Part shown: positions 10,101-31,213 of the stretch, piece after piece | Layout of the letters: every line of letters begins with the position of its first letter | How positions within the stretch are numbered: the first letter of the stretch is position 1 | Source of the DNA: Verrucomicrobiales bacterium | GTDB lineage: Bacteria; Verrucomicrobiota; Verrucomicrobiia; Limisphaerales; UBA9464 | Reading direction: 5' to 3' | Assembly: GCA_016793645.1 (NCBI GenBank) | Contig: JAEUHD010000244.1 | Coordinates: forward strand, 1-40,690 | DNA: 40,690 nucleotides | Notes under the pieces: model-generated | The model's input: the letters and a program-made list of their open reading frames with translations, nothing else | Told to the model about the DNA's origin: nothing | Database searches by the model: none | Position numbers and translations under genes: made by a program

Positions 10101-13100
10101 TGACCCAGGTGCGGGCTCCTTCATCAAAGCCTCCTTCAAACCGGGCGACCTCCTCCCCGGAGTCGCGATCCTGCGTGCTGCCGGAAAGTTTCAGGCCGCC
10201 GTTTTCGAACCGCCGGAGGGTGCTGCGCAACGCGGTGTCCACCCGGATGGGCGCCTCCCACCTTGGGGACCAGACGTTCGTGCGAACGGCTCCGGTGAAT
10301 TCGACTTCGACGCCGGTCATGCGGCGGGCCGTCGGATCCACCGTCAAGGTGCGGCGCTCCACGAGGGGCGCCCCGGAGGCGGCGGTGGTCACCACCCGCC
10401 TGGGGACGAGTCCAAACAGGAATCCGTCGTCGTACTCCCGGACACTGCGCTCCAGGAACGTCCGCGAGCCGTCAAAAGGATCAAACGACTCCCCGGATTC
10501 CACGCGTCCGGACCGGGCGAGGTTTCGTCGTTGGATCTCGCGCCCGCCGGTGATGAGATCCCGTCGTTCGAGGACCATCACCGGTTCGGCTCCCGGGAGG
10601 ATCTCCCGGACCGTCGATTCAAACCGCGGCGGTCCGGGGTTGGGATGCAGAATCGCGGGCGGTGGGATTGCGGCGGGATCGTCGTCTCCAGCGAGATTCG
10701 GGGAGGATATCGAACGCTGGAGGCGGCCCATCGGATCGTAGGTATTGGTGGTGATGAATCCCTCACCCACCACCTCCACCGGGAGCGGAAACAGTCCGAA
10801 GGTCTCTCGCGTCCAGTCCCCGGTGACGCGGACCAGTCGCAACCGGCGCAGCCGCGGCGCCGCGGCGTCCAGCGGGTCGGTGTTCCCACCGGGAAACCAG
10901 GCGTCCTGAGTCCGGGTCTGCTCAATGAGATCCCCCTCCTGCGGTGCCGCGAGGGTTCCGCGATTCACCCGGGTCTCGGAGGACAGTTCGAGCCCCAGGG
11001 GATCCCGTTGAACCCGGGTGATGCGGTCCGCGGTGATCCGGTCCCGGAGGTGTCCCCGCTCATAGACATCGATCTCCTCCACCCCGGTCAGCGGATCGAT
11101 CCGATGACGACGGATTTCGCCAAGGGGAAACTCCAGACTCACCGCCACCCGTTCACGTCGTCCGTCGCCATCGGCATCCAGATCCAGGATGGCCCCGGCA
11201 TAATGTTCCCGGTCGAGTCGGGCACGGTCCGCGACCGGCATCCGATCCAGCGCCGTGAACACCGGTTCGAGTCCGGACTCCGTCGTTCGCAGCCCGGTTC
11301 CAACCACCGGCCCCGTGCCGGAGCGGATCAGGGGACCCAGTTCGAGGCGGCCGTTTCGTTCCTGGATGGAGTTGAGGAACGCGACTCCGGCGCCACCCGG
11401 GGACACCCCGGCCTTCCGGGCCTTCTCTATTTCGGAACCTTCACGGAGCCGGTCCGAATCCCGGGCGAGCTTTTCGAGACTGGCCAGGGCCGTGACCTGG
11501 ACCACGCGGCGGTGTCCGTTGATGACCGCCACATAGCGGAAGCTGCTTCCCTCGGACTGCACTCCCAGCAGGGGATCGGGCGCGGAGGGATCCGTGCCAA
11601 TGCCATGGGCCTTCAATGCCGCACGCACCGGTTCGAGGAGGGCATCCTCCCCCGGCACCGGTGGGAGACCGAGGCTCCTGCGACGCAGGTGATGGCGCCA
11701 CTCAACGAGGGGCGCCAGCAGGTCCACGAAGCGTTCCCGCACCGCGGTTTCCCCGAGGTAAATCCTGGGCTCAAGGTCCGGAACGGGCAGTGATGGGGCG
11801 TCTTCCGCCTCCACGATCTGCTCCATGACCATGCCGCGCTCCAGACCCCGCTCGTACTCGCGGAACCGTACGACCTCGCGTTCGATCGTGGCGGAATAGT
11901 CACCGTAGGCCTTCAGTCCGTAGAGGATCATCGCGGTCTGACCGCGGTGTTTTCCGTCCGGGATGGTGTAGGCGAACACCGCGAGGTTCGAATCCCTCAA
12001 CCCGCCCTTGCCATCGGAGACCTTCACGTACCCCAGGGGAACCATCCGACCGTTCCGGATCTCGGATTCCATCGATTCGCGGGTGGGGAAGTGGACGACA
12101 ATGGTTCGTCCGAGGAGTCCGTAAGCGTAGTCGTTGTCGAACGCCTTGAGGTCGTCCTTCATCAGGCCGCGCTTGTAGAAGAGAAGGACGGGATAGCCGA
12201 AGATGCGGATCTCGTAGGCGGCGAGATCGGTCATCCGCGCGGCATAGGGGAACGGCATGCGGAGCTCCTTGTCCGCCAGCGACCGGAACCGCATCCGCTG
12301 GACGCTGTTCATGAGGGCGCGGATGTCGAAGGAGATGCCCAGGTATTGCGCCCACGCGCGGTAGGGGGCGTCCCCGCGGACGAGGCTGTAGAGACTGACT
12401 CCACTCAGGGGGGTGACTCCCTTGGCGCCCACCGCGGCGGCGATGATGTAGTTGATGTACACGTCACCGTTGAGGGAGAAGTACGGGTTGTTGAACAAAT
12501 CCCGCATGACCCCGGAATACGCCTTGCCGCTGACGACGGCGGCACCGCTGAGGATGTTGACCAGCAGGGTGTATTTCGCATCCATGTTCGCCTGCTTCGC
12601 CAGGGCGAGCATCGCCTTGAGGTCGCCGTCGTTGAGTCCCTCCAGGGTTTCCCGGATCTGTTCCTCGGTCAGTTTCGAGAAGTCGGCCCGGAGGATCTCG
12701 ATGTCCGAGCGCGTCAGGTACTCATCAGGCTTGAGCTTGAGTGTCGGGTGGCGCTGGCGCGCAGCCAGCAGGAGAAACAACTCCCGCATTTCCTCCGCGG
12801 TCGGGACCTTGGGGATATACCGGGGTCCCACGATCATGTTGTAGCCCAGTTGCGCACCGGCCCCGAGCGGGAATCCCACTCCCGATACCCCGCCCCCGAT
12901 GTTCAGACCCGCGAAGAGCGGGGAGAAAATCATGTCCAGGTTGGCCCGCTTCAGGTCGAGTACCTTGCGGCGGTGCTCCAGATGCGCGTTGATCAGGCCG
13001 AATCGGGCAAGGGAGAGTTGCTGGAGCACCTCCGGTTCCCCGAACTCAAGAACGTTCCAGCGCCGGGGATCGGGTTCGGCAGGATTCTCGATGCGGAGTT

Positions 13101-14154
13101 CGACGAAGTCGCGTCCGGTGATCGGATGCGGATCCGCTTCGAGTCCGTCCCCCAGGGGCGTGCGCTTGAAGGCGAGGGCGTACTGCCGCGGCTGGCCCGG
13201 GCGTTTCAGCCAGAGGCGGGTCTGGCCCTCGAGGACCTCGCGCTCCACGTCATCCTCGCGGTAGGCCGCCACCACGCGCGAAAAGTTGCCGGCGTCGTCC
13301 ACGGCAAATTCGAAGGCCACGAACAGGTTCGTGCTTCCCGTCGGACGGGGCGGCAGCGGGTCCAGCGGGAAGGTGCCTTCATGGGTGGCCTCCGAGAGCG
13401 CGTCCCACTGGACTTCCGGATTCAGCCGCTGATGGCCGTCGCGCGCGGAGAGGATTTGCTGGGCGGTTTGCTGCAGGTTGCGCGAGCGCTGATAGGCGAT
13501 GCTTCGCAGCAGCGCTTCGTCCGCGGCCTGAAACCCGAACTCCACGCGGCATCGATGCGGCGTTCCCCCCGCGGCATCCGGAAACGTGAGCGTCAGGAAG
13601 GTGGGCGAATCCGGGGAGTTCTCCGTGCGCTCCGCCACCTCGAGCGCGGAAAGCCGGCGGCCGGCGACTCCCTCCTCGGTGCGACCGTCCGCGGTGTAGG
13701 CCCACACGTCCACGATCGCCCCCTGGCTCTCGACGAACTCGAAGAATCCCCGGCGCGTTTCGAAGCGCCCCTCCACCGCGTTCAGGGTCGCCGGTTGCAG
13801 GGAAACGAGGGCGGCGAACCAGGTTCCCGCGAGCTTCTCCTGCACCAGCGACGCATAGCGCGCGTCCGCAGCCGCGCGGGCCGACTCCGCGGCAAGGTCG
13901 CCATGGCGCTCCACGACGGGGAGGGCCTCCGGAAGCCGGGGCCAGGCGGACGACGGATCCGAGGCTTCCGAAGCCCGTGTTCGACCGAGGGCGCACCCGA
14001 TCAACAGGATCACCCACAGGGGGAACAGGACCGCCTTGAAACGTCGAACATCGTGAATTCCGGGAGGACGGGTCCCCGAATTCAGGGGCCGGCTTCCTGG
14101 ATGGGAAGTTTCGGCTCTGGGGATTGGAAATCCATCGTCGGTCAACGGGTTCAA
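1144..14154 (-). CDS. Giant membrane-anchored protein: YD/Rhs-like exterior plus polytopic domain with glucan-synthase-like core
   Basis: Uninterrupted 4,336-codon ORF from TTG at 14154 (AAGGG lies 5 nt upstream on the minus strand) to TGA. Residues 39-58 form a hydrophobic segment ending in LLIGC, which fits a lipobox, after an unusually long 38-residue leader. Residues about 60-980 are soluble and unrecognised. About 980-1900 contain degenerate YD/Rhs-like units (TYDPMGRLQ near 1135, DPFGRVRE near 1530, MDRSGNLLE near 1707, IYDAQGQL near 1865). About 2280-2690 are helical and could be an alpha/alpha toroid. A membrane helix follows at about 2722-2745, then a soluble stretch, several helices between about 3000 and 3355, a soluble domain at about 3380-3820, and about ten further helices to a short soluble C-terminus. 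The 3380-3820 domain contains LDRNATVNDLDAF (near 3605) and GISEDTWA followed by GGRVKY (near 3733-3755). These resemble, by eye only, motifs of GT48 beta-1,3-glucan synthases. Function unproven; an exopolysaccharide synthase/exporter is a hypothesis. The gene stands alone in its orientation. Confidence 0.9.
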   Translation of the reverse strand: MNPLTDDGFPIPRAETSHPGSRPLNSGTRPPGIHDVRRFKAVLFPLWVILLIGCALGRTRASEASDPSSAWPRLPEALPVVERHGDLAAESARAAADARYASLVQEKLAGTWFAALVSLQPATLNAVEGRFETRRGFFEFVESQGAIVDVWAYTADGRTEEGVAGRRLSALEVAERTENSPDSPTFLTLTFPDAAGGTPHRCRVEFGFQAADEALLRSIAYQRSRNLQQTAQQILSARDGHQRLNPEVQWDALSEATHEGTFPLDPLPPRPTGSTNLFVAFEFAVDDAGNFSRVVAAYREDDVEREVLEGQTRLWLKRPGQPRQYALAFKRTPLGDGLEADPHPITGRDFVELRIENPAEPDPRRWNVLEFGEPEVLQQLSLARFGLINAHLEHRRKVLDLKRANLDMIFSPLFAGLNIGGGVSGVGFPLGAGAQLGYNMIVGPRYIPKVPTAEEMRELFLLLAARQRHPTLKLKPDEYLTRSDIEILRADFSKLTEEQIRETLEGLNDGDLKAMLALAKQANMDAKYTLLVNILSGAAVVSGKAYSGVMRDLFNNPYFSLNGDVYINYIIAAAVGAKGVTPLSGVSLYSLVRGDAPYRAWAQYLGISFDIRALMNSVQRMRFRSLADKELRMPFPYAARMTDLAAYEIRIFGYPVLLFYKRGLMKDDLKAFDNDYAYGLLGRTIVVHFPTRESMESEIRNGRMVPLGYVKVSDGKGGLRDSNLAVFAYTIPDGKHRGQTAMILYGLKAYGDYSATIEREVVRFREYERGLERGMVMEQIVEAEDAPSLPVPDLEPRIYLGETAVRERFVDLLAPLVEWRHHLRRRSLGLPPVPGEDALLEPVRAALKAHGIGTDPSAPDPLLGVQSEGSSFRYVAVINGHRRVVQVTALASLEKLARDSDRLREGSEIEKARKAGVSPGGAGVAFLNSIQERNGRLELGPLIRSGTGPVVGTGLRTTESGLEPVFTALDRMPVADRARLDREHYAGAILDLDADGDGRRERVAVSLEFPLGEIRRHRIDPLTGVEEIDVYERGHLRDRITADRITRVQRDPLGLELSSETRVNRGTLAAPQEGDLIEQTRTQDAWFPGGNTDPLDAAAPRLRRLRLVRVTGDWTRETFGLFPLPVEVVGEGFITTNTYDPMGRLQRSISSPNLAGDDDPAAIPPPAILHPNPGPPRFESTVREILPGAEPVMVLERRDLITGGREIQRRNLARSGRVESGESFDPFDGSRTFLERSVREYDDGFLFGLVPRRVVTTAASGAPLVERRTLTVDPTARRMTGVEVEFTGAVRTNVWSPRWEAPIRVDTALRSTLRRFENGGLKLSGSTQDRDSGEEVARFEGGFDEGARTWVIRRDGWYRLGWTNRTETATYSPGGRLLRSRTGSALEARPAYDADGITRSNLVWFASGTPGVFDSLVRVDSDFRWTEGTRDARVQTWISGSPHDEYRSTMDAEGRVIVDGQRNYPDLRLATRIAYDGGTERVRQSELYQNDQRREVRIPDAPQPQPDGTVLLPVRVTPFWGLNSTEILALGDPFGRVRESRSEDGRITRTASWFPGSALIQKAEVLGRDGAVRESVSLELSGSLERGIPTDRALRSRLAPWSAPPSQAPLMEVISIARGTGVAVSSLSAEGRSHFDLTQPFPAPRYVTDPSAASGVPVRLDDTTLGHVWSISRTSPAVSPEFPGEPLMRVESVSLLPLFNPVRTRMLMDRSGNLLESQISRIPNPGGAGFNATNLFEAPPTTADRFTYRYRYAPGSWVEVPASAGLGRERVLTNRAPDAAASGLAVNAVPWRDQVTSVQGTAGTSAATVRTSSLGNGGIAASLTTDPREWASNPHLPDESGLWTAWTTQGLDPTGAQVLSAEDIYDAQGQLSVRRILKQTEGGAPAIKFSYQLPQPNTTHWLATSPPPRAGESHSLSIAGTGVLGGTDDDFYYFYTRSTNGVDPILYFRDKAGHEVRVGSDSTRRGLRPVRYWPLSPALSQWLPDESAPDQAATVAGPLWLGPGERAYAVSVPELVHAGIDPAQLDTAILESRHPIEATPLRRMRRGTRVDPLRHAPKVVRESRQSPHDFVRVTETPVHRSPAAIFADEDVRTFLERNGRPIAVTQPAPKRSPYPDVVVVATGDTGTPRPLYRLSSLDGHFEQRFETISQGEMVQVYSVVQGFELPRMEIFNPRILGEEISPGYIAYGYDYHARVRVTKSGSILGHPVAVLRNRVAANSFHYAGDRILDWFAGPNPNRPTTSRFHYGMLHHARLQAAALRRLPTLSEAILPTRSLPWLEVTNNPSAAALDLNLVRVAATLNELHVRRFATNLNRADAPTYLIPTMLETEVERFVDTVEEARIASLAIRAGEPGIARDLLEFYRNKSFWDPSREGLEPIQASYDAISGTALARELAFSLPVQSRPTAAAQIAVASAALDLADASGDAGWESFADELADTLLREFRPEESASGPRGISATEYLPVQRALGLVFWPEAARFPVESNADAFALLERITTRRRLSPSTPELLSRLQAGLAEQRAWLNTHVLPEVQRTGVVPTAWFEVQDIYGETTALAPERWTSPEAWLAWLDVAGRSGGVTPETARGWLDNLARAHGARVEGTWGLDWSLPLLRSEAISTVNTARFLRVATQLGHVPAANLARTSLSRIADNGSFPAVVTTATARPLKTEQGTVIYPRSPQRGGGWPPTFAVAGELAGTNAAPSTPPQVVPRARRILGNPVRQARTDLAAFVGLAALYYVGVMMVTLAWWRLRRFRHRSSEADPTLVPEPVMRRAEERWSARVLGVRSPAGTTCTRYSNATVEQNFLMQLRAVYKLVLEWRRRERRWAEDDPRLVEDGTDPWLNGLDEFASVVGIYLRYVIKAGAKDGFDHPEAFEGNEDSNHLWSRLVMYLSEHYCTLLNLLHRYESLPTDQDRMLFEWEFSKALEALGVRSRKEAFDARSLFQFPENPDAMDLLVIQRPGATLTDVMKEVAARLNVPMPHLMRIVENYKVWKRREQPFPLHPYLIEFAKIFPSFVLTGLGALIWYNQSVGDSPVIPYLGSLLTTAALDPASLIWAVPLACSVALGLAARYVRTYRFEDTLLPRTKAGMLADSTVTSIFVRTKPATGGVHEGRLWNPSLYEHLGWILRVLGWSALAVTLFRLTTPSFVTYLIVKGILAMLVITEILGTVVPLLVSLFSLRIQDRAKLNPSGRLLQFLNRLNLTATRPASPIWLSVRYHLRPSVPSGDGASQGQAIAVFLLLNFSFFLIGAYLCQQILPLWFTEVYLSGSPFKLLLGGLVFWNTLYLLRYGIFLLATAVAAVFSTFPICSVAAALGLAELGLAAFGPDASWNPVRHEGPAWTVALGLVLLAIFEEPLLAAIRRWRTRPAAPPRDPETTTTSSQGLGIVYMSGDDLSSLKLTPALLMSRWRLLRDRLGSTGISLLHRITGELDDAALERLFQGLFDLESRHAVTLWNPRQLVVDGEAPSLDPSLGLNLTVPDESQRRGILTAWDARRWLVTMMSTAGHSQDTAINLVDVALRLEREGLAPRTVFYFIQNKYDNRDDNRPSQLKYSDGELGHRDKLCRLIRALAPGARAWSVQNWTPFGFKSAGMTGMDLVPEETMRLGTMVVLDRNATVNDLDAFTRDLRTAMADPDLIIVIPGRGTTNTLTDLGQGSQLIEEGHRSFLKGLMSCLGGRASEGVGTGWGNILTVTYGRVQRAMMHPLTPKMPLTSRMIRGSSFAVRTEGLIGFTPHAVGISEDTWAVSQASHNVIALGGRVKYALSSALWHKIRETWSHAEWMAAFPRWSGGYLQMQHDPLMQRINDFGPASIFAREIRSNSGRNFLSAPFALLNALLLPLAIILDVTPFIQILMLLWNFGFVMNQVLTLHGLNTYLEATGFHRIGALLGALLGGAGAAMIPELQAVAPAGAVLGALYGGFLVGLNRWLVTRLRDIILFGPQLVLHALGQVMRQSIEFVASGAAATDASAVNMAFRTAAGPREDRPLDTYPHFINLRTIVWGIGIPALILNLVALYSLDMFNVLLLLPSLLFSVSLVLGPYLMRPNPGRHPGIRVLLPKFLGWTGAVVFYTAVSLLIAQGGTGGLLGVALLLGLFGWIAWRGGRYLGFHWRWARAGRALRRLLSRAGVPGELTTPLHAQLLAAAGDPARTSAALDKAGLPPEPRKAVASFLDSRIVPFLKEPMQPRETSHRGVAVFQRTFALALLVFLWFFVVPVPGLFVFSAGAYKTSMSLQTILTIVGAATALVLAGFAAGRWVQWFDRIGRGRTGLLPRAQAAYAELRRRMDQSGGLADEQSSRYLALFTDLKTYVDQRSDAYAWRILHQLEEELRPVSNPPPRNPAP

Positions 14155-14355: not shown

Positions 14356-16461
14356 GTGATTGGATTCGTCCTGCGGGTTTCGTGGCTGATCACCGCCGTC
14401 CTCCTCGTGGCGACGGAATGCTGTGGCGCGGAGAACGCCGGAACCGATGCCGCGGGTCCCCGTGCCACGACGACGCGTTCATCCTTCGGGGTCACCCTGG
14501 GAACCACCGTCCTGGTTCCCTCGGCGGTCACGGCGGCACAGCTCTCCGCCGTATCCAATCGGATCGCTTCCGCCGGTGGCGTGGGCTCGCGGGTGATCGA
14601 GATACCCGCGTTGTACGGGGATGCCCCGGATGGCACGCCCAATTCCCAGGATCCCACCGAGTTCATCCAGGGCTACATCGACAAGGCCAGTGCCCAATAC
14701 TCCGAGTCCGAAGGACGCGTTCGCCTGGTGTTTCCCCCCGTCACGTGGAGTCATCGGGAACTCATCCTGAAGCCGAATGTCATCTACCAGGCGGTGGGGG
14801 AGACCGTCTTTACGCCACGCTATGACTCCCCGCCGGGAATGGCGGATCGGTCCCTGTGGAGGACCCGCCGGGTCGACGGAATCCGGGTGGATCCAGTCAC
14901 CGGGGGATTCGACGGCTGGCGGTTGCCGAATCCGGACGACTGGTATGGGTTGAGCCGCAACATGGCGTTCGTCGGTCCCGGGCGGTTCATCCTGGATGTC
15001 CGGCAAAAGCGGCGCACGCAATCGGCGCTTCAATGGAATGAGGTGGAGAATCTTTACGTGGAACACGGGGTCATCGAAGTCCGACATGGGCCCAATGCGG
15101 TCCACTGGGCGGTGCGGATGGGAGGCCGGGATGTGTACTGGGAGCATCCGATCATTCGCAATGGATTGTTGACCGGGCAGGACGGCGTCCACGTCACCCA
15201 TGGACATGGAATACTGATCCGGGGTGGGGACATTCAATCCGGGGACGACTGTTTTGCGTTCGGACAGGAATACGCCGGAGGATCGAATGTGGGTCCTGAC
15301 GAACCCCTGTCCGATGTTTACGTCACCGGGGCGGCCTGCGACAGCCGGCGCGCCCGGGCGATCATCTGCTACTCCGGCCTGAACTACATCGGGGTGACCC
15401 ATCGCCATGCGCAACGGGTCCGGAGGGTCCTCGCGGAGGGGCTCACCGGCCACGTGGCGAAGGACCGGCAGTGTGCCGTTTGGATGGGGTACTATCCTGC
15501 GCGGGATGCGATCTGGCGCTACGAGATCACCCGTCCCGGCCGGGGATATCGGGATGGCTACTACACCAACCTTCCGGTGACGGGCGGGGGAGGGTCGGGC
15601 GCCCGATGTGCGGTCCGGGTGGTGGATTCGCAGGTGGACCGCGCCTGGATCTACCAGGACCGGACGGCGAATCCTCCCACGTTTCGTGTGGGCAGCCGTT
15701 ATGTGGCGGATGGGCTCGTGGATTTGTCGTCCCTTCCCGATGGTTCCGGAGCGGTGGTGGTGGCGAAGTACACGCCCGTGCCCAATGACCGGGTGGAGGA
15801 TGTCGATGTCACCTTCCAGGGGCAGATGGGTGGGGTGTCCCACGACGGTGAATCCGCCTACGGCCTCGCCCTCGAGGGGTGCCGGCGCGTGGGCCTCCAT
15901 CTGGAACTTTCCGTCGTCGAGAACGAAACCAAGCCGGAGCACCATCCGTTTTTGATCACGGCTGCGGAGGACAGCCGGATTCAATTGATTCTAAAAACGC
16001 CCGTCGCCCGAAGCGGGATCATCAACTCCGGCGTCTTTCCCGGACAGGTGGTGGACGGGGTCACCTTCGATGGGTGTTCCTTCACCGGGACCCCCCGATT
16101 GGAGGGGGGCGTGATCAAGTTTCTGGGGTCCAATGGGACCGTGCGGGTGGTCGGAAGCCGATTTGAGCGGATCCCCCCGGACCGCGCCGCGTTCTATGCG
16201 CCCGAGGTGGAATCGCGGCGAACGAACCGCCTTGAGTTGCTTGAGGTGGTGGGAAGCACCTTCTCCAGTCTGGCGCCCCCGCCCAGGAATTCCTTCGTCC
16301 TCGACCTGGTGAATTCGGCGCTGGGCGGGCAGATTGAACGCCTCGAGATGTCCTCCAATCGGTTTGAGAACATGCGCTGGGATTCCCAGGAGCAGTGGAG
16401 CCGCGGAATTGCCCGATGGCGTCTTCGAGACAATGCCGGCCATCCGGACCAGTCGAGGTGA
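14356..16461 (+). CDS. Secreted right-handed beta-helix protein, GH28 (polygalacturonase)-like
   Basis: 701 codons from GTG. The N-terminus (VIGFVLRVSWLITAVLLVAT) is a signal peptide. Residues about 60-110 resemble the opening of pectin-lyase-fold enzymes, with the first turns naming a replaced or expanded set of strands. The core has GQDGVHV (Asp276) and QSGDDCFAFG (Asp297, Asp298). The 21-residue spacing between the first Asp and the Asp pair is the same as in GH28 polygalacturonases (Asp180 to Asp201/202 in the Aspergillus niger enzyme). The GHG histidine motif and the RxK substrate motif that follow in true GH28 enzymes are not found. Later turns (VDGVTFDGCSFTGTPRLEGG, LEMSSNRFENM) continue the beta-helix to the C-terminus. 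The protein is probably periplasmic or secreted and acts on an acidic or plant/algal polysaccharide. Whether it is catalytic is uncertain; a lyase, epimerase or transferase of the same fold is possible. It is convergent with the dehydrogenase gene, 35 bp away. Confidence 0.8.
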   Translation: MIGFVLRVSWLITAVLLVATECCGAENAGTDAAGPRATTTRSSFGVTLGTTVLVPSAVTAAQLSAVSNRIASAGGVGSRVIEIPALYGDAPDGTPNSQDPTEFIQGYIDKASAQYSESEGRVRLVFPPVTWSHRELILKPNVIYQAVGETVFTPRYDSPPGMADRSLWRTRRVDGIRVDPVTGGFDGWRLPNPDDWYGLSRNMAFVGPGRFILDVRQKRRTQSALQWNEVENLYVEHGVIEVRHGPNAVHWAVRMGGRDVYWEHPIIRNGLLTGQDGVHVTHGHGILIRGGDIQSGDDCFAFGQEYAGGSNVGPDEPLSDVYVTGAACDSRRARAIICYSGLNYIGVTHRHAQRVRRVLAEGLTGHVAKDRQCAVWMGYYPARDAIWRYEITRPGRGYRDGYYTNLPVTGGGGSGARCAVRVVDSQVDRAWIYQDRTANPPTFRVGSRYVADGLVDLSSLPDGSGAVVVAKYTPVPNDRVEDVDVTFQGQMGGVSHDGESAYGLALEGCRRVGLHLELSVVENETKPEHHPFLITAAEDSRIQLILKTPVARSGIINSGVFPGQVVDGVTFDGCSFTGTPRLEGGVIKFLGSNGTVRVVGSRFERIPPDRAAFYAPEVESRRTNRLELLEVVGSTFSSLAPPPRNSFVLDLVNSALGGQIERLEMSSNRFENMRWDSQEQWSRGIARWRLRDNAGHPDQSR

Positions 16462-24595: not shown

Positions 24596-24672
24596 GGGGG
24601 TGTAGCTCAATTGGTTAGAGCGCTGCCCTGTCACGGCAGAGGTTACGGGTTCGAGCCCCGCCACTCCCGCCA
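24596..24672 (+). tRNA. tRNA-Asp (anticodon GTC)
   Basis: A 77-nt cloverleaf with encoded CCA. The acceptor stem GGGGGTG pairs with CACTCCC (one G-U). The D stem is GCTC/GAGC, the anticodon stem CTGCC/GGCAG, and the loop CTGTCAC gives anticodon GTC. The T loop is TTCGAGC, and the discriminator base is G, as expected for aspartate. The T stem ACGGG/CCCGC has one A-C mismatch at its outer pair (49-65). Confidence 0.96.
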
Positions 24673-25098: not shown

Positions 25099-26721
25099 AT
25101 GAATCCAGTGATCCTCCGCCTCGGTCGTTCGCCCACATCCTGGGTCTTTTTGGCGCTGCTGTGGGCGTTGGGCCTTTTGTCTGGTTGCGCCACGACCGAG
25201 AAGCAGGTTCAGCAAACCGCCAAGGACTGGTGCATGACCATCCGGGGCAGCCAGGTCATTCCCGTTTATCCCCTGACCGAGGACATCCAGGCCGGTGACG
25301 TGTTTCTGGTTCAGGTTCCGGTGGACCGGCAACAGGAAATCTACCGACGGCGCGGGTTTCTGCCCCTGGACAACCATATCGCCCGGTTGGACCCGGACGG
25401 CTACGCGGCCTTTTACGATCACTCGTTCCTGACTTCCAACACCACCAACCTCCTTCCGCGGGACTGGATTCGTCCCGATGGGATTGGCAGGTACCGGGGT
25501 ACCAACGGTGCCAACACCGCTTCGTGGCAGGCCGCTCCGCGGGCTGCGTTTCCCAGCTACAGTTTCTCCGTGCGCAATGGTGCGGGATTGAGCCTCGCCA
25601 TCCCGGTGCAGGGAGTCCCGGTCGGTCTGAGTTTGCTCAATAGCGACGCCGCCAGCGGGACCATCCAGATCGCCGACGCCCGGACGATGGGAGTCGATCT
25701 CTATTCCCTCTACCAGCAGTTGCGCCAGTGGTCGTCCACGAATGCCGAGTTCCTTCGATTCTTTGGCAAGGGTTATGATGATGCCCGGCCGAATTATCTC
25801 CGGGTGGTGACCCGGGTTTACGCGGCGGGACGCATGTCGGTGACCCTGAAGGATGCGACCAGCCGCAGTGGCGGCCTCGATGTGGGGGCTCCCAAACCGG
25901 TCAACCTCCTGCTCCCGGAGCTGCCGTCCGGAACCAACGCCCACCCCGAGACCACCCTTCGGAACTACACCAACGCGTGGTCTGTCATGAGCGAAATGGT
26001 GAGGGCCGCCGGTGCCGTCGGCAGCAATGCCAACCGGATGCTTCCCGGCGGCAGCCTGAAGCTGGCGGCCGCGAGCTCCCGGATGGTCGGCATTGACGAG
26101 ACGTTCGATCCCCCCGTCATTTTCGGGTATCTGGGATTTGATTGCGCCATTTATCGCGGTGGTGTGCTTGGACCTCCGATTCCCACGTTCGCCGTCCTCG
26201 ACCCGGACTACAATCTCGGTGGGATGCTCCGGAACAACCCGGTTTACGCGCAGACGATCGACAAGGCCGTGTATCAACTTCTGCTTTCTGATACCCGGAA
26301 TCCGCGCGCCCAGTCCGCGGTACGCCAGCTCGATTCCCTCGCCACCTATGTGCCCAATGAGTTTACCGCCTATTCAGGTCCGGGGTCCGACGGCGGCACG
26401 CCGGTCCTTTCCGCCATGGCGTTGACCAGCGCCGAGCTGCGTCCACCGGGGTTTGCCCGATACCTCTGGTTCCACGGCTTCCGTGCCCGATTGGATGCTT
26501 CCATCAGCGCCCTGGAACAGTCGCTGGCGCGGTCGTCCTTTCAGTTGAAGACCGCCGCCGGGGCCGTGGAGGCTGTGACGCCCGACAATGCCCTGCGCAG
26601 GAGCCTCGAGGATGCCCTCGCCTATGACCGAAGCCTGCGCCAGCGCATGACGGAGGATGCCGCAGTGCAGACCGCCTACGCCGACGCCTACGCCTACTAC
26701 GTTGAGCAATTGATCCACTAA
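25099..26721 (+). CDS. Large lipoprotein of unknown function, first gene of the uncharacterised operon
   Basis: 540 aa from ATG. The N-terminal signal (SWVFLALLWALGLLSGC) ends in LLSGC, a textbook lipobox, so the protein is predicted to be lipid-anchored, with Cys30 as the modified residue. I recognise no domain. Early residues (EDIQAGDVFLVQVPVD, then LPLDNHIARLDPDGYAAFYDHSF) suggest a folded periplasmic domain. Residues about 180-290 are beta-rich (YLRVVTRVYAAGRMSVTL), and the last 110 residues are helical with several charged heptad-like stretches (RASISALEQSL-type patterns, then RSLEDALAYDRSLRQRM). The next gene starts 11 nt downstream, which places this at the head of a co-directional gene run. 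Attaching the system to the envelope is a reasonable inference. Confidence 0.88.
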   Translation: MNPVILRLGRSPTSWVFLALLWALGLLSGCATTEKQVQQTAKDWCMTIRGSQVIPVYPLTEDIQAGDVFLVQVPVDRQQEIYRRRGFLPLDNHIARLDPDGYAAFYDHSFLTSNTTNLLPRDWIRPDGIGRYRGTNGANTASWQAAPRAAFPSYSFSVRNGAGLSLAIPVQGVPVGLSLLNSDAASGTIQIADARTMGVDLYSLYQQLRQWSSTNAEFLRFFGKGYDDARPNYLRVVTRVYAAGRMSVTLKDATSRSGGLDVGAPKPVNLLLPELPSGTNAHPETTLRNYTNAWSVMSEMVRAAGAVGSNANRMLPGGSLKLAAASSRMVGIDETFDPPVIFGYLGFDCAIYRGGVLGPPIPTFAVLDPDYNLGGMLRNNPVYAQTIDKAVYQLLLSDTRNPRAQSAVRQLDSLATYVPNEFTAYSGPGSDGGTPVLSAMALTSAELRPPGFARYLWFHGFRARLDASISALEQSLARSSFQLKTAAGAVEAVTPDNALRRSLEDALAYDRSLRQRMTEDAAVQTAYADAYAYYVEQLIH

Positions 26722-26732
26722 CCCACCCGACC

Positions 26733-27101
26733 ATGCCCAAGGCCCGCGCCCAGCGTCCCCTGAAGCCGAGAACCCGATCCCTCCGAAAGGCCGCTCAAAC
26801 GCCGGCGGCGACGGCATCCCCGGTGCGGAAACAGGGGCGCTCCGCTCCCCCCACGGCCCTGCAGGCATTGGACGCTGTGGGGCCGGCGGGTTCTGTCCGG
26901 GGCGGTTTTGGGGACGGCGCCCCGGATGACCAACTCCTGGATGTCAACGTGCCGGGCCTGGGGCACAATGCCGCCAACGCCATGGAACGGCACCTCGCCC
27001 TCGAGCATGCCGTCAGCAATGTCTGGGCAGTCGAGGACATTTCAGTCCTTCGCCGAATGGAGGACGCCGAATCCGGCAAGTGGGTGATGTGGCGCCGATG
27101 A
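26733..27101 (+). CDS. Small protein of unknown function with basic, low-complexity N-terminus
   Basis: 122 aa. Residues 1-45 are rich in Arg, Lys, Ala and Pro (MPKARAQRPLKPRTRSLRKA) and look disordered. The rest (LLDVNVPGLGHNAANAMERH, then AVSNVWAVEDISVLRRMEDA) is a compact alpha/beta-looking domain ending WVMWRR. No signal peptide and no family that I recognise. The 11-nt gap after the lipoprotein gene and the shared direction argue that it is a real operon member. The basic tail could bind nucleic acid or an acidic partner; this is speculation. Confidence 0.72.
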   Translation: MPKARAQRPLKPRTRSLRKAAQTPAATASPVRKQGRSAPPTALQALDAVGPAGSVRGGFGDGAPDDQLLDVNVPGLGHNAANAMERHLALEHAVSNVWAVEDISVLRRMEDAESGKWVMWRR

Positions 27102-27114
27102 GCCCCGGGTTGTC

Positions 27115-27288
27115 ATGCGTTCGGACCCTGGCGGATGGGAGACGCGTTTCATGGACGCCGTCGCTGGTCGGCCCGCCGAATTCAACCGGCAGGAAAAGGA
27201 GTGTCCTGCGCCGGGGATCCATTCATTTTCGATCCGTGGGGCCTTCCTTTCGGAGGCGGGATTGATGTTTGAACGGCTTCCGTGGTAG
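27115..27288 (+). CDS. Candidate small ORF (57 aa) filling the only long gap of the operon
   Basis: ATG at 27115 to TAG at 27286-27288. The product (MRSDPGGWETRFMDAVAGRP, continuing with RQEKECPAPGIHSFSIRG and ending GLMFERLPW) has a balanced composition with acidic, aromatic and hydrophobic residues, unlike the Arg/Ser/Pro-rich shadows of this genome, and most third codon positions are G or C. It starts 13 nt after one gene and stops 24 nt before the next. No clear Shine-Dalgarno site. A competing frame, 27098-27265, would start at an ATGA overlap but encodes an arginine/serine-rich peptide that looks like a shadow. Function unknown. Confidence 0.45.
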   Translation: MRSDPGGWETRFMDAVAGRPAEFNRQEKECPAPGIHSFSIRGAFLSEAGLMFERLPW

Positions 27289-27312
27289 GCGATCACTATC
27301 AGTCCGCGTCCA

Positions 27313-27762
27313 ATGCATTCGGAACCCGACAGTCTCCAATCGGTCCTGACCTCCCTGGCGGCGGACGCGGTGGGAACCCAGAGGCTTCTGGATGCGGGGC
27401 ACGCGGAGGATATGCGTCGGATGGCCCTGGAACTTCCCCGGCTTCTTGCCGCGGTCCCGCCCGTGTCCGTGCCGGACTGGATGGGGGCACTTTTGGGGAC
27501 GGCTCTTCCCGCCCGGTTGCAGGTGGTGTCGATGGCGATGAGTTTGCGATGTGAACTGCGCTCCGATCTTCAGGTGGGCGTCGGCGTGGCGGTCCGGCCC
27601 TTGAATCTGGGATATGAGGCACGCTTTGGATCCGCTGAGACGTGGGCCACCCAACTCCAATGGGAGGTGACTGCAACTCCGGCACCCCCGATCCAGACCC
27701 TTTCCAAGCTGAATCATCTCCAACAACCAAACCAAGAACGAGACCATGGCCAGACCCAGTAA
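27313..27762 (+). CDS. Unknown protein with helical N-terminus and beta-domain (paralogue of the next gene)
   Basis: 149 aa from ATG. Residues 1-65 are helical (SVLTSLAADAVGTQRLLDAG, MRRMALELPRLLAAVP). From about residue 72 a beta-type region begins, PARLQVVSMAMSLRCEL, then RSDLQVGVGVAVRPLNLGYE and TQLQWEVTATPAPP. PARLQV...LRCEL...DLQV lines up with PSRYQF...VRLDL...DLAL in the following gene, so the two are probably duplicated domains. No signal peptide or membrane segment, so it is predicted to be cytoplasmic unless exported by a dedicated machine. The last 17 nt overlap the start of the next gene. Function unknown. Confidence 0.78.
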   Translation: MHSEPDSLQSVLTSLAADAVGTQRLLDAGHAEDMRRMALELPRLLAAVPPVSVPDWMGALLGTALPARLQVVSMAMSLRCELRSDLQVGVGVAVRPLNLGYEARFGSAETWATQLQWEVTATPAPPIQTLSKLNHLQQPNQERDHGQTQ

Positions 27763-28393
27763 ACTCATCAACGACCTCAACTCGGTGCCGGCCATCGTCG
27801 GGAATCTGGGTTTGAGCATCTCCGAGGCCCAGAAGGCCTTCAACCTGGACTATCTTCAGGCCATTGAACGGCTGGTGGGTCTTGCAAAGTCGGTGGCCGA
27901 CGCAACACCTCCGGATACCAGCAAGGAGGCGGACCCGGAGAAGCGGAAGGCGCTGCTGGAGGCGTCGGCGGCGCAGTTTGAGGGCTTCAAGGGACTGCTG
28001 TTCGACCTGCTCAAGGCCACCGCGCCCTCCCGGTATCAGTTTTCGGAGACCACGCTTGCCGTGCGACTGGATCTCGCCCAGTCCGCCGACCTGGCCCTCA
28101 CGGCCGGTTTCGGGGCCGGCTTTGGTGCGGTCGCCATCAACGCCTCCGTAACTGTTGGATTCGGGTATGACTATCGGGCCGCTGCGGAGTGCCGCACCGT
28201 GATCCATGCCATTCCCGCCGACCCGGCTTCCCTGAACACCTTGCTCACCCAGGCGGACAAGGCAAACAGCAGGGCGCTGGAGTTGCCTCCACGGCACCCA
28301 ATGGACCAGCGCATCATCGATCAGATGCAAAAGACCCTGGAGAAACTGACCGGCCGCAAGGCGGCGGCCATCACGGAAGAGACGAAAGGCTGA
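27746..28393 (+). CDS. Unknown protein, helix-plus-beta domain, paralogue of the preceding gene
   Basis: 215 aa, ATG at 27746 inside the end of the previous gene. Residues 1-100 are helical (SEAQKAFNLDYLQAIERLVG; EASAAQFEGFKGLLFDLLKA). Residues about 105-165 hold the shared beta-domain: PSRYQFSETTLAVRLDL, LTAGFGAGFGAVAINASVTV and FGYDYRAAAECRTVIHAIPA. The glycine-alternating small/hydrophobic stretch could be amphipathic strands or a beta-hairpin that inserts in or packs on a surface. The C-terminal 50 residues are helical and charged (MDQRIIDQMQKTLEKLTG). No signal peptide. The general plan, an N-terminal helix with Gln followed by strands ending in a Pro-rich turn, recalls the DUF2589-type plan, but I cannot confirm it. 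Confidence 0.82.
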   Translation: MARPSKLINDLNSVPAIVGNLGLSISEAQKAFNLDYLQAIERLVGLAKSVADATPPDTSKEADPEKRKALLEASAAQFEGFKGLLFDLLKATAPSRYQFSETTLAVRLDLAQSADLALTAGFGAGFGAVAINASVTVGFGYDYRAAAECRTVIHAIPADPASLNTLLTQADKANSRALELPPRHPMDQRIIDQMQKTLEKLTGRKAAAITEETKG

Positions 28394-28425
28394 GCCTCCC
28401 CGGCGTCGTCGCATCCGACTGACCT

Positions 28426-29463
28426 ATGACGGAATGGAATACCATCAGCCGGTCCGCCAGTGAACTGGCGGCCGCCGCGGAGTCCGCACGCAGGGTCGCC
28501 CGGGAGCTGTCCGACCGGGCCAAGGAGGCGGCGGGAATGGACACCAAGGGCGGCAAGGTGCTGTTGACCGAGTCCGAGGGGCGCGAGCGGGTGGCGAAAA
28601 TCACGGCCGCGCTGGACACGGTGGGTGCGCGGATTGCCGAACTCTCCGCCAAACTCGGTCTGCCCGAAGCACCCGAGATGGCCGCCGCCGCCGCGGACGC
28701 GGCTCCCTCGCCCGCCAAGTCCAAGCCGTCGGAAATGGGGGGCAAGGAGTCCAGGCCGGATCCCGTCGACATCAATCGGGAGTTTGGTGAATTCCTGGGG
28801 ATGGTGGGCCGCTCCGTGGTGAACGCCCAGCGCGAGTTGGATGTTCTGAGCCAGGAGTACCTGCGTCAGCAGGGGCCGGGTGCTCCCGCCCTGCCAAGCC
28901 TATTCCGGATTCCGAAGCTCAGTGCGGACATCAAATTCGCCCTGGAAAAGGGCAATGGAAAAAAGCTGAATCTCGTCCTCTTTGGCACCCACGAAAACCG
29001 GTCCGAACAACATCAGCAGTCGATGTCCTTCGAGGTCGTCTCGGCGCCTCCTCCCCCGGAGTTGCTCAGGGACCTGGCGGTGGGCAGGCCCAAGGCCGGA
29101 TTGGTCCTGGACCCGCCCGCCCGGGATGCCCTGCTGGCGGAGTTGCGCGTCATCCAGGACCCCGCAAAGGAACTTGAATTGGAGGTCCTGAGCCGGGCGG
29201 AAACCTGGGACCGGGTCCTGGTCCTGTCCGTACCGGCGACGGACCCCCGGTTTGCCAGTCCGGATTGCTTCCTGCTGTTGGCGGACCCCGCGCAACAACA
29301 TCTTCTCGGGGTCTGGCATTGGAGGAGCCCGAGGCTTTCGGTGGTCTACCGTTTTTCGCTGCAACCGAAGAAGCTTGAGGAAATTGGGCCCGCGCACGCG
29401 TTTGTCGTTTCGTTTGGCGGTCAGCAGGCGGACTTCCTGCAACGACTGAGGGGAACGGAATAA
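28426..29463 (+). CDS. Unknown protein with coiled-coil N-terminus and beta-rich domains
   Basis: 345 aa from ATG, 32 nt after the previous gene. Residues 1-85 are a strongly predicted alpha-helical/coiled-coil region (SASELAAAAESARRVARELS; AKITAALDTVGARIAELSAK). An Ala/Pro linker follows, then a helix (GEFLGMVGRSVVNAQRELDV) leading into LPSLFRIPKLSADIKFAL, strands, and QQSMSFEVVSAPPPPELLRD. The order helix, strands, then a Pro-rich turn is the same as in the two genes upstream, so a related domain is likely though more diverged. The C-terminal half (LELEVLSRAETWDRVLVLSV; LGVWHWRSPRLSVVYRFSL) is a second beta-domain. Its stop TAATG overlaps the next start by one base. Function unknown. Confidence 0.83.
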   Translation: MTEWNTISRSASELAAAAESARRVARELSDRAKEAAGMDTKGGKVLLTESEGRERVAKITAALDTVGARIAELSAKLGLPEAPEMAAAAADAAPSPAKSKPSEMGGKESRPDPVDINREFGEFLGMVGRSVVNAQRELDVLSQEYLRQQGPGAPALPSLFRIPKLSADIKFALEKGNGKKLNLVLFGTHENRSEQHQQSMSFEVVSAPPPPELLRDLAVGRPKAGLVLDPPARDALLAELRVIQDPAKELELEVLSRAETWDRVLVLSVPATDPRFASPDCFLLLADPAQQHLLGVWHWRSPRLSVVYRFSLQPKKLEEIGPAHAFVVSFGGQQADFLQRLRGTE

Positions 29464-30809
29464 TGGCGGAGGCGGACGTCGAATTCGGTGTTTTCCTCGA
29501 TACCCTGGAATCGATTGCGTCGGAGGTTCCTGTGGCTGCGCGTCAATTGGGTGTCGATTCCGCGGGCGGGCTGCTTCCCGACCTTCAGACCGGAGAGCGG
29601 TATGTCCTCCTGCGGTCGGCCTCCTTCGATTGGCAGTTTCAGTTGGTACGACGGGAGGATCGTTACGTTCTGCTCTTCATCCGCCGGCCGGGAAGGAACG
29701 AGATTCTGCTGCGAGGCAGGGTTCAGTATCGAATCGAGCCCTCCCCGGACCCGCCGCGTACCGGCGACCTGCGCCCCGAGGATTTGGCCTTTCGCCTCAT
29801 TCGGCCGCCCTTCCTGATTCCGAGGCCCACGCCGGAGGAACTGTCGAAGTTCGCCGGTCCGGGGGCGACGCCGACAAACACTCTTCTCCTCCGGTTGCGC
29901 GGAACAGAAGTCCTGGCCATCACCCATCCCGGGGCCGGGCCGGACGGCGCGGACCTCCGGTATTCGGCCCTGGGTTCCGGCCGCATCCGGGGACCCCGAT
30001 GGCCACTGGCCCCGTTTTTGGACCTCCTCAACGAACTGGCGGCATGGGTGGGGCAGGATTTGATGTCCGGTGCCGAGGAGCCGATCCGGCCGCCCTTCGG
30101 GGAGTCCGACGAGCCGAATGAGGTCTGGCAGATGGTGCGCTGCCTTTCCGAGACCTATTGTTCGATCACAAACCGCACCCGGGGAACGCCGCCAAACGGG
30201 AAACGTCGGTTCCTGGATCCCTTGATGTCCGACTATGGTGTCACCGGGTGTGAGAGTGAAGTGGCCCTGTTGCTCAACACCCGTGGCGCCTTTGCGCAGT
30301 CCGATGATGACGAGACATTGCAGGTCCTCCTTCGATTGCGATTTCAGGGCGGCTCCCCGCCCCGTGCGCGGCTGGCATTTGGGCCTCCGGATTTTCTCGT
30401 CGGCGGGGAACTTCACGACGCTTTCGTCCCGGCCTTTCTCGAGGCCACACCGCTCGACGAACTTGCGGAGGCATTGGGGGTGACCGAGGGGCAGGCCGAG
30501 GAATTCATCAGCACGCATGCCCCCCGGGCGTTCATCTTTCGCGCTGCATCCCGTCGTTCCTCCGATACGGACACCGATCTGCTGGCCTGCTCAGGAACCC
30601 TGAATGGTCGTGACCTGGGCGTCCTGCTCCGGGGTGATTTCCATGTCCGACCTGGGGACCAGGGCCCTGTCGTGGAAGCGAGGGGATTGGTGCGAATCCA
30701 GTACGCCGGACCGTTGGATCGCAATGCGCTGGGGTTGGACTCTGAGGATGTGAACTATCTGCTTCGGTTGTTGGTCGCGATCCAGGGTTGGAACTATCTA
30801 CTCGCATGA
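29463..30809 (+). CDS. Unknown 448-aa beta-rich protein of the operon
   Basis: ATG at 29463 in a TAATG overlap with the preceding gene; TGA in an ATGA overlap with the next. The first 40 residues are helical (FLDTLESIASEVPVAARQLG). Strands follow (ERYVLLRSASFDWQFQLVRR, DRYVLLFIRRPGRNEILLRG, VQYRIEPSPD); the paired YVLL repeats suggest an internal beta-meander. A middle helical segment (LAPFLDLLNELAAWVGQDLM) is followed by another beta region with LLRLRFQGGSPP. Near residue 320, TPLDELAEALGVTEGQAEEF looks like a small helix-turn-helix-like insert. The last part (LNGRDLGVLLRGDFHV to LVRIQYAGPL) is beta again. No signal peptide or membrane helix. Unrecognised; a structural or binding role is only a guess. 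Confidence 0.83.
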   Translation: MAEADVEFGVFLDTLESIASEVPVAARQLGVDSAGGLLPDLQTGERYVLLRSASFDWQFQLVRREDRYVLLFIRRPGRNEILLRGRVQYRIEPSPDPPRTGDLRPEDLAFRLIRPPFLIPRPTPEELSKFAGPGATPTNTLLLRLRGTEVLAITHPGAGPDGADLRYSALGSGRIRGPRWPLAPFLDLLNELAAWVGQDLMSGAEEPIRPPFGESDEPNEVWQMVRCLSETYCSITNRTRGTPPNGKRRFLDPLMSDYGVTGCESEVALLLNTRGAFAQSDDDETLQVLLRLRFQGGSPPRARLAFGPPDFLVGGELHDAFVPAFLEATPLDELAEALGVTEGQAEEFISTHAPRAFIFRAASRRSSDTDTDLLACSGTLNGRDLGVLLRGDFHVRPGDQGPVVEARGLVRIQYAGPLDRNALGLDSEDVNYLLRLLVAIQGWNYLLA

Positions 30810-31213
30810 AACTCCTCGAATCCGCCGCCCAATGGGTGGCCTCCATGGTCCGGATCGGTTGGCGACGGGTTCGGGATTTCTCCGGGTGCGGAGCCTATTT
30901 GCCGCCTCCGGTGAGGATGGTCGAGAGTGGCCGCATGGATTTCGGCGCGAACTATGCCTGGGTGGTTTGGGGGTCGGACCGTCCCCCGTCCCAAGTGCGG
31001 CCTTCGTCCCCTGAAAGGCCCGGGGTCACGGAGCCTGGCTTGGACCGCCCCCTTCCTTCGGAGGTCCTGAACCAACTTCGGCTGGTGTCCGAATGTGGCG
31101 CCGTCTTGGTCGCAACTCTGCGCGACGCGGAGGGGGCCAGGGCCCCGGCCGGCCTGATGGTGACCCCGGCCTGCCTCCGGGTGTCCCTATTGGCCCCTCC
31201 GCGGCACCCCTGA
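30806..31213 (+). CDS. Small unknown protein, last gene of the operon (possibly frameshifted at its 3' end)
   Basis: 135 aa from ATG at 30806, which overlaps the previous stop by four bases (ATGA); a longer in-frame start at 30788 would lie inside the previous gene. The N-terminus (MKLLESAAQWVASMVRIGWR) is amphipathic rather than a signal peptide. The middle contains FGANYAWVVWGSDRPP and a Pro-rich linker, then LPSEVLNQLRLVSECGAVLV. The frame stops at 31211-31213 just after a CCCC run, while the -1 frame continues with coding-like residues for another 35 codons. The true product may be about 169 aa. Function unknown. Confidence 0.7.
   Translation: MKLLESAAQWVASMVRIGWRRVRDFSGCGAYLPPPVRMVESGRMDFGANYAWVVWGSDRPPSQVRPSSPERPGVTEPGLDRPLPSEVLNQLRLVSECGAVLVATLRDAEGARAPAGLMVTPACLRVSLLAPPRHP

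What the first reader, a model, noticed from the sequence alone, without database searches (positions are those of the whole stretch)
25099..31213. Eight-ORF uncharacterised operon headed by a lipoprotein
All genes run the same way with short gaps or overlaps (11, 13, 24, -17, 32, -1, -4 nt) and none belongs to a family I can name. Coupled start/stop overlaps imply fixed stoichiometry, so the products probably form one complex. An envelope lipoprotein plus several signal-less beta-rich proteins with helical N-termini is the kind of set expected of a surface or secretion-related apparatus. This is the best candidate in the window for an undescribed system.
Basis: partly seen in the sequence, partly recalled or inferred. 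Interest (0 to 1): 0.82.

Follow-up and report, generated by a model that had tools for sequence, protein, structure and literature searches.

The report
Mobile four-gene cassette of related proteins
Inside the reported eight-gene run is a rare four-gene cassette that also occurs, in the same gene order, in bacteria of three other phyla; at least three of its proteins look like diverged copies of one building block of unknown function, and in some relatives the cassette sits beside cell-wall-directed enzymes, so it may be an undescribed lysis or defence-like system.

Summary
The eight same-strand ORFs and all seven stated gaps are real; none of the proteins matches Pfam at E≤1. Comparison with other genomes splits the set. 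Only g4-g7 (27313-30809) form a conserved cassette: it recurs in the same order in Desulfobacteraceae, alphaproteobacterial and Saprospiraceae MAGs (g5 about 50% identical) but in none of 144 other near relatives searched, which points to horizontal transfer. The lipoprotein (g1) has relatives without the cassette; g2, g3 and g8 have none in the related loci, and g3 has poor coding statistics.

Profile-profile comparison links g4, g5 and g6 to one superfamily that also joins DUF2589 (PF11655) through bridging families; g7 is unplaced. Members carry an 'AQxxLD' helix and a β-rich module and occur as tandem paralogues. Signal-less cell-wall-directed proteins lie beside 8 of 24 such clusters (2 of 4 window-type genomes, not the window). 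The alphaproteobacterial copy adjoins a complete type 2 BREX set.

Best reading: a cytosolic complex of paralogous, adaptor-like subunits controlling a lytic effector. This is inferred; both structure predictions failed. A surface or secretion apparatus with the lipoprotein is not supported.

The parts
27313..27762 (+). g4, 149 aa: N-terminal 'AQ/TQxxLD' helix plus beta-rich module; cassette core
   Evidence: Relatives in L004 (E 8e-11) and L003 (E 1e-7); L005 by position and alignment; profile g4 ~ B5 family 87.6%; the L004 relative matches Trypco2 at E 0.0012, below its cut-off
27746..28393 (+). g5, 215 aa: best conserved subunit, 46-50% identical across four phyla
   Evidence: same family as the Chlorobium-type 173-aa proteins (97.7% when g5 is left out of the other profile)
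28426..29463 (+). g6, 345 aa: variable N-terminal part, then 'AQxxLDxxS' helix at about residue 134, then beta-rich module; cassette core
   Evidence: Relatives in L019 (E 1e-37), L004 (2e-17), L005 (3e-16); profile g6 ~ B215 family 91.1%
29463..30809 (+). g7, 448 aa: largest cassette protein, conserved PPDFLVxG motif; relation to the superfamily not shown
   Evidence: Relatives in L004 (E 1e-28), L019 (3e-22), L005 (8e-9); g6 ~ g7 12.9% only, N-terminal part 25.4%
30806..31213 (+). g8, 135 aa ORF after g7; a 136-aa ORF holds the same place in L005 but no sequence relation was shown
   Evidence: weak coding statistics
25099..26721 (+). g1, 540 aa lipoprotein; member of a wider lipoprotein family, probably not part of the core
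   Evidence: Relatives L027 8678-10030 (E 2e-63) and L075 8145-9611 (hhalign 82%), neither beside a cassette
26733..27101 (+). g2, 122 aa, basic and low-complexity N-terminal half; no relatives found
27115..27288 (+). g3, 57 aa; doubtful gene
   Evidence: Negative codon log-odds, no relatives
24596..24672 (+). tRNA-Asp upstream; no copy of its 3' end (10-20 nt) elsewhere in the window, so no sign of tRNA-site integration

Best explanation
The real unit is the g4-g7 cassette, a horizontally transferred accessory module. Shown by sequence: g4, g5 and g6 belong to one superfamily (N-terminal AQxxLD helix plus beta-rich module) that also takes in DUF2589 through bridging families, and such proteins typically come as several different paralogues in one operon. 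Inferred: the paralogues co-assemble in the cytoplasm through the shared module into a hetero-oligomeric scaffold, with g7 as an extra specialised subunit, and this scaffold holds, targets or switches on a polymer-cutting enzyme. In relatives that enzyme would often be a signal-less, endolysin-like peptidoglycan hydrolase, acting on the cell's own wall (lysis, as in abortive defence) or on that of a neighbour after release. In the window no such enzyme is near the cassette, so it would have to act in trans or g7 would have to replace it.
For: Order g4-g5 in 4 of 4 loci that could show it (window, L003, L004, L005), g5-g6-g7 in 3 of 3, g6-g7 in 4 of 4 with L019. Patchy spread: 1 of 145 near relatives (the window genome itself), none of 3 same-genus genomes; 1 of 288 in the phylum with g7; yet 46-50% g5 identity to other phyla. 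Profile links: g5~B5noG5 97.7%, g6~B215 91.1%, g4~B5 87.6%, B5~DUF2589 94.5%, B5noG5~DUF2589 87.7%. Null: of 196 forward-versus-reversed comparisons the best is 20.8% (a self pair), 3.8% between different profiles. Signal-less cell-wall-directed proteins beside 8 of 24 clusters: PG_binding_1 plus M15 (L019, below both cut-offs; L065), Extensin-like_C (L004/L020), N-acetylmuramidase (L069, L032), and three PG_binding_1 proteins whose other part has no Pfam name (L030, L067, L068). Complete type 2 BREX next to the alphaproteobacterial copy. Trypco2, an adaptor domain of conflict systems, is the best Pfam hit of the L004 g4 (passages of PMC7159879 and PMC10907252).
Against: No hydrolase near the window cassette or in L005 (short contig). 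16 of 24 clusters lack one. g5core alone against DUF2589 gives 1.0%; the link is transitive. g7 is not shown to belong. PADLOC finds nothing above chance for the 7 of 8 window proteins tested. Both AlphaFold jobs failed (pLDDT 40.5 and 37.4), so module, scaffold and fold are unverified. The near-versus-far count (7 hydrolase-HMM hits, all in or near clusters, 0 among 184 far genes) uses HMMs made from those very hits, so only the zero is informative.
Confidence: 0.36

Rival explanations
1. Envelope or secretion apparatus anchored by the lipoprotein: g1 sits in the outer membrane and g4-g8 form the remaining parts.
For: g1 is directly upstream on the same strand with short gaps; a g1 relative exists in one other cassette genome, G289; cell-wall-directed proteins beside relatives would suit wall passage.
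Against: g1 relatives are unlinked to the cassette in G289 and occur without one in view in G1142; none in G288, G290 or the three Chlorobium-like genomes. No signal peptides or membrane segments in g2-g8. No secretion or injection families.
Confidence: 0.12
2. Tail-like or particle-like device: the paralogues build a released particle that carries a lysin as cargo, like a phage tail or contractile particle in working but not in descent.
For: Signal-less lysins with phage-endolysin-like domain make-up beside clusters (the likeness to endolysins is recalled); variable 'cargo' (M15, muramidase, GH5 cellulase in L061); several paralogous subunits per operon.
Against: No sheath, tube, baseplate or other PHROG match above chance in g1-g8; no relative in viral contigs with five queries or in phage records with two; in plasmids none for g5 and one record each for two other family members.
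Confidence: 0.15
3. Metabolic or structural intracellular assembly with no role in conflict; neighbouring enzymes are incidental or serve growth-dependent remodelling.
For: A tandem set of 'DUF2589 related genes' (AF0414-AF0417) in Archaeoglobus fulgidus is reported as up-regulated on lactate (passage of PMC3949148); the L003 copy lies beside glycyl-radical-enzyme-like genes (by eye); 16 of 24 clusters lack a cell-wall-directed neighbour (and text).
Against: Extreme patchiness with cross-phylum identity and the BREX neighbour look more like accessory conflict genes.
Confidence: 0.22
4. Chance run of unrelated hypothetical genes that happen to be co-directional.
For: True in part: g1, g2, g3 and g8 are not kept with the cassette.
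Against: g4-g7 order is kept in four phyla.
Confidence: 0.03

Closest known systems
DUF2589 (Pfam PF11655)
   Same: N-terminal AQ-helix then beta-rich module; tandem paralogues in one operon; cell-wall-directed proteins beside several clusters
   Different: Window proteins do not match the Pfam model; different set of paralogues; DUF2589 and the g5-type family were found in different genomes (8 and 8 of 336, no overlap as listed)
Chlorobium/Sphaerotilus-type cluster (99-173-171-170 aa plus coiled coil), itself unnamed
   Same: 173-aa and 171-aa proteins are relatives of g5 and g6
   Different: Has a coiled-coil protein and a 99-aa protein and no g4 or g7 seen; no cell-wall enzyme in view
Trypco2 (PF19631), adaptor of VMAP ternary conflict systems (PMC7159879, passages read)
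   Same: Weak Pfam match for the L004 g4 over a short beta-rich stretch
   Different: Below the curated cut-off; no trypsin, MoxR or vWA gene among the window proteins scanned; hhalign of g4 with the single Trypco2 protein at hand gives 1.1%
EAD1-type conflict systems with lysozyme-like effectors (PMC7159879, passage)
   Same: Conceptual: adaptor module plus a peptidoglycan-attacking enzyme
   Different: No EAD domain shown; here the adaptor-like proteins are separate subunits and several per operon

Membership tests
DUF2589 (PF11655) | Match to the Pfam model above its cut-off | tested here: not met
   0 families for g1-g8 at E<=1; PF11655 not found in the window genome
DUF2589 superfamily (wider sense) | Profile-profile similarity over helix and beta module (g4, g5, g6) | tested here: met
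   Transitive: g5~B5noG5 97.7, g4~B5 87.6, g6~B215 91.1, B215~B5 99.2, B5noG5~DUF2589 87.7; null maximum 20.8. g5core against DUF2589 directly: 1.0
DUF2589 superfamily (wider sense) | g7 shows the same module | tested here: inconclusive
   g6~g7 12.9%; g7 N-terminal part ~ g6 25.4%
DUF2589 superfamily (wider sense) | Same three-dimensional fold | tested here: inconclusive
   AlphaFold2 of g5 and g7 failed: pLDDT 40.5 and 37.4; no fold search was run on them
Trypco2 / VMAP ternary conflict system | Trypco2 domain match | tested here: inconclusive
   L004 g4 relative E 0.0012, 19.5 bits against a cut-off of 24.2; window g4 no match; Trypco2 not found in the window genome
Trypco2 / VMAP ternary conflict system | Neighbouring MoxR, vWA or trypsin genes | tested here: not met
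   None among g1-g8 or the ten other window proteins scanned
Contractile or phage-tail-derived apparatus | Tail, sheath or baseplate family matches; relatives in phages | tested here: not met
   PHROGs nothing above chance; none in viral contigs or phage records
Known anti-phage defence systems (PADLOC) | Match to a defence model | tested here: not met
   for g1, g2, g4-g8 (g3 not tested): only a chance-level gasdermin hit to g1 (E 0.027)
Known anti-phage defence systems (PADLOC) | Protection against phage | not testable with these tools
   Needs an experiment

The most novel reading that the evidence does not exclude
A mobile conflict or lysis machine of a kind not yet described: a hetero-oligomer built from several different paralogues of one beta-rich module (uniting DUF2589 with several other unnamed families found here), into which lineages plug different signal-less, endolysin-like or other polymer-cutting enzymes.
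Probability: 0.22. Interest if true: 0.85.

Novelty: new variant of a known kind. Interest (0 to 1): 0.6.

Why it matters
DUF2589 has no known function that these searches could find: the library holds one paper naming it, in passing, and none naming PF11655. Joining it with several other uncharacterised families, showing that they come as multi-paralogue operons, and finding cell-wall-directed proteins beside a third of the clusters gives a concrete, testable role for a large unassigned group. If the conflict reading is right it would add a lysis-based class to bacterial immunity; if not, it still defines a scattered, horizontally moving intracellular assembly.

Tried and rejected
Direct family searches (Pfam, PHROGs, NCBIfam, PADLOC) and solved-structure searches gave only chance-level hits. 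The gasdermin hits to g1 (E 0.039 and 0.027; two versions of one family, so not independent) and the Clostridium_P47 hit to the L005 g7 (E 0.13) were judged chance. A prophage or plasmid origin found no support. tRNA-site integration: no repeat of the tRNA-Asp 3' end and no convincing flanking repeat. Promoter scan: none found; terminators not clearly above the shuffles (10 against 6.7, sd 2.6). AlphaFold2 of g5 and g7 failed, so no fold search was run. MltA next to the L066 cluster was not counted, since it has its own lipoprotein-like signal and may be housekeeping. Rows dropped before the 24-locus count: L017 as a near-duplicate of L016, and L003 because it is the same genome as L019. L061-L063 are close to one another but were kept as three, so the 24 are not all independent. 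Three of the 8 counted neighbours (L030, L067, L068) have only PG_binding_1 recognised by Pfam; their enzyme activity is presumed from the rest of the sequence by eye. In one search two rows (g7N against g7M and against g7C) repeat the previous result because those files did not exist yet; they are ignored. labels two of the hydrolases 'cluster' because they overlap the last cluster gene by four bases.
Full report
Observation. The eight + strand ORFs are present with the exact gaps stated. Codon statistics support g1, g5 and g6, and more weakly g2, g4 and g7; g8 is slightly negative and g3 is doubtful. No Pfam family matches any of the eight at E≤1, and NCBIfam, PADLOC and PHROGs give only chance-level hits (g3 was not in the NCBIfam and PADLOC calls). 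g1 is a lipoprotein by its N-terminus; the rest show no export signal in a crude scan.

What is conserved. One scan of the GTDB-based contig collection with g5 returned 3 loci, in a Desulfobacteraceae, an alphaproteobacterial and a Saprospiraceae MAG. All carry g4 before g5; L004 and L005 continue with g6 and g7. The Desulfobacteraceae contig ends after g5, but another contig of the same genome starts inside g6 and continues with g7. BLAST of the window proteins against 1923 ORFs of 21 loci gives g5 46-50% identity (E 4e-62 to 2e-51) to these three, g6 E 1e-37 to 3e-16, g7 E 1e-28 to 8e-9, and g4 E 8e-11 and 1e-7 with no BLAST hit in L005. Small gaps or overlaps are kept (window -17, 32, -1; L004 -11, 48, -8; L005 17, 35, 76). 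g1-g3 and g8 have no counterpart at these loci. g1 relatives are elsewhere: G1142, between ordinary genes and without a cassette in view, and the alphaproteobacterium on another contig.

Distribution. g7 was found in 1 of 288 genomes of the phylum (the window genome), g5-type proteins in 1 of 145 near relatives (again the window genome; three same-genus genomes negative), 1 of 398 and 4 of 395 in the phyla of G289 and G290 (each count includes the centre genome), and 8 of 336 in that of G288 with a broader profile. Sporadic presence with about 50% identity across phyla points to horizontal transfer.

Superfamily. Three Chlorobium-like genomes and a Sphaerotilus plasmid carry a variant cluster of 173-, 171- and 170-aa proteins and a coiled-coil protein. 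Seven Desulfobacterota genomes carry further variants, and DUF2589 proteins come in similar runs in most of 8 other genomes and on a Smac51 plasmid. Profile-profile comparison joins g5 to this family at 97.7% with g5 left out of the other profile, g6 to the B215 family at 91.1% (92.8% in the other direction), g4 to B5 at 87.6% (89.4%), B215 to B5 at 99.2%, and B5 to DUF2589 at 94.5% (87.7% without g5). The controls (lipoprotein, M15 enzyme) stay below 3%, and 196 comparisons with reversed profiles reach 20.8% at most. g5core against DUF2589 directly gives 1.0% and g7 remains unplaced, so the claim is transitive and covers g4, g5 and g6. The shared sign is an N-terminal helix with AQxxLD, seen by eye in g5, g6, the 173-, 171- and 215-aa proteins and, looser, in g4 and DUF2589; the pattern did not hit it in the 170-aa, 209-aa and 225-aa members or in g7. 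Both AlphaFold2 models were too poor to use.

Neighbours. Cell-wall-directed proteins lie beside 8 of 24 clusters on the same strand: PG_binding_1 plus Peptidase_M15_4 in L019 (81 nt after g7; both matches below cut-off) and L065, Extensin-like_C in L004/L020 (about 630 nt before g4), N-acetylmuramidase in L069 and L032 (a few same-strand ORFs away), and PG_binding_1 proteins in L030, L067 and L068 whose remaining part has no Pfam name. None of these shows a signal peptide in the crude scan. L065 and L066 have coiled-coil proteins with PASTA domains, and L061 ends in a GH5 cellulase. Among window-type genomes the count is 2 of 4; the window itself has none nearby, and its downstream gene is a GH97 enzyme with a hydrophobic, signal-like N-terminus. 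Beyond the alphaproteobacterial cassette lies a complete type 2 BREX set: BrxHI, BrxD, PglZ, BrxC/PglY, PglX, PglW (that this set makes type 2 is recalled).

Mechanism. The best-supported reading is a cytosolic hetero-oligomer of paralogous subunits that controls or carries a lytic enzyme, possibly in defence. Shown: relatedness of g4-g6, operon structure, patchy spread, the neighbours listed. Inferred: assembly, control of the enzyme, the defence role. The Trypco2-like hit of the L004 g4 (E 0.0012, below cut-off), the description of Trypco1/2 as domains co-occurring with trypsin-like peptidases in conflict systems, and the report of adaptor-linked lysozyme-like effectors there (passages of PMC7159879; PMC10907252, passages) make the analogy reasonable but are no proof of membership. 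Against it stand the 16 clusters without such a neighbour and the report that tandem DUF2589-related genes in Archaeoglobus respond to lactate growth (passage of PMC3949148).

Literature. DUF2589 appears in one paper of the library, PF11655 in none, and Trypco terms in two relevant papers. No description of this cassette was found by these searches; most subscription papers and all preprints were outside the library.

Noticed in passing
L020 14501-20000 and L021 1-12114: Complete type 2 BREX set directly beyond the alphaproteobacterial cassette, with terminase-like and serine-recombinase-like ORFs further on (the latter by eye).
   Followed up: partly
L061 4089-6854 (also L062, L063): A GH5 cellulase-domain protein without a clear signal peptide ends a superfamily cluster in three related Desulfobacterota genomes (Pfam run on L061 only).
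   Followed up: partly
L004 1-7115: Two very large proteins (at least 659 aa and 1712 aa) without a Pfam match above chance lie just upstream of the Extensin-like_C protein and the cassette; they may belong to it.
   Followed up: partly
L028 618-8041: A Chlorobium-like genome has a Trypco2 protein near a NACHT-like NTPase and a formylglycine-enzyme-like protein (the latter two by eye), fitting the published conflict systems.
   Followed up: partly
window 25099-26721; L027 8678-10030; L075 8145-9611: An unnamed lipoprotein family spanning at least Verrucomicrobiota-like and alphaproteobacterial genomes, sharing an 'IPVYPLTEDIQAGDVFL'-like N-terminal region.
   Followed up: partly
window 1144-14154 (-): A 4336-aa ORF, by far the largest in the window; not examined.
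   Followed up: no
window 14356-16461 (+): A 701-aa protein with no Pfam match at E<=0.001.
   Followed up: no
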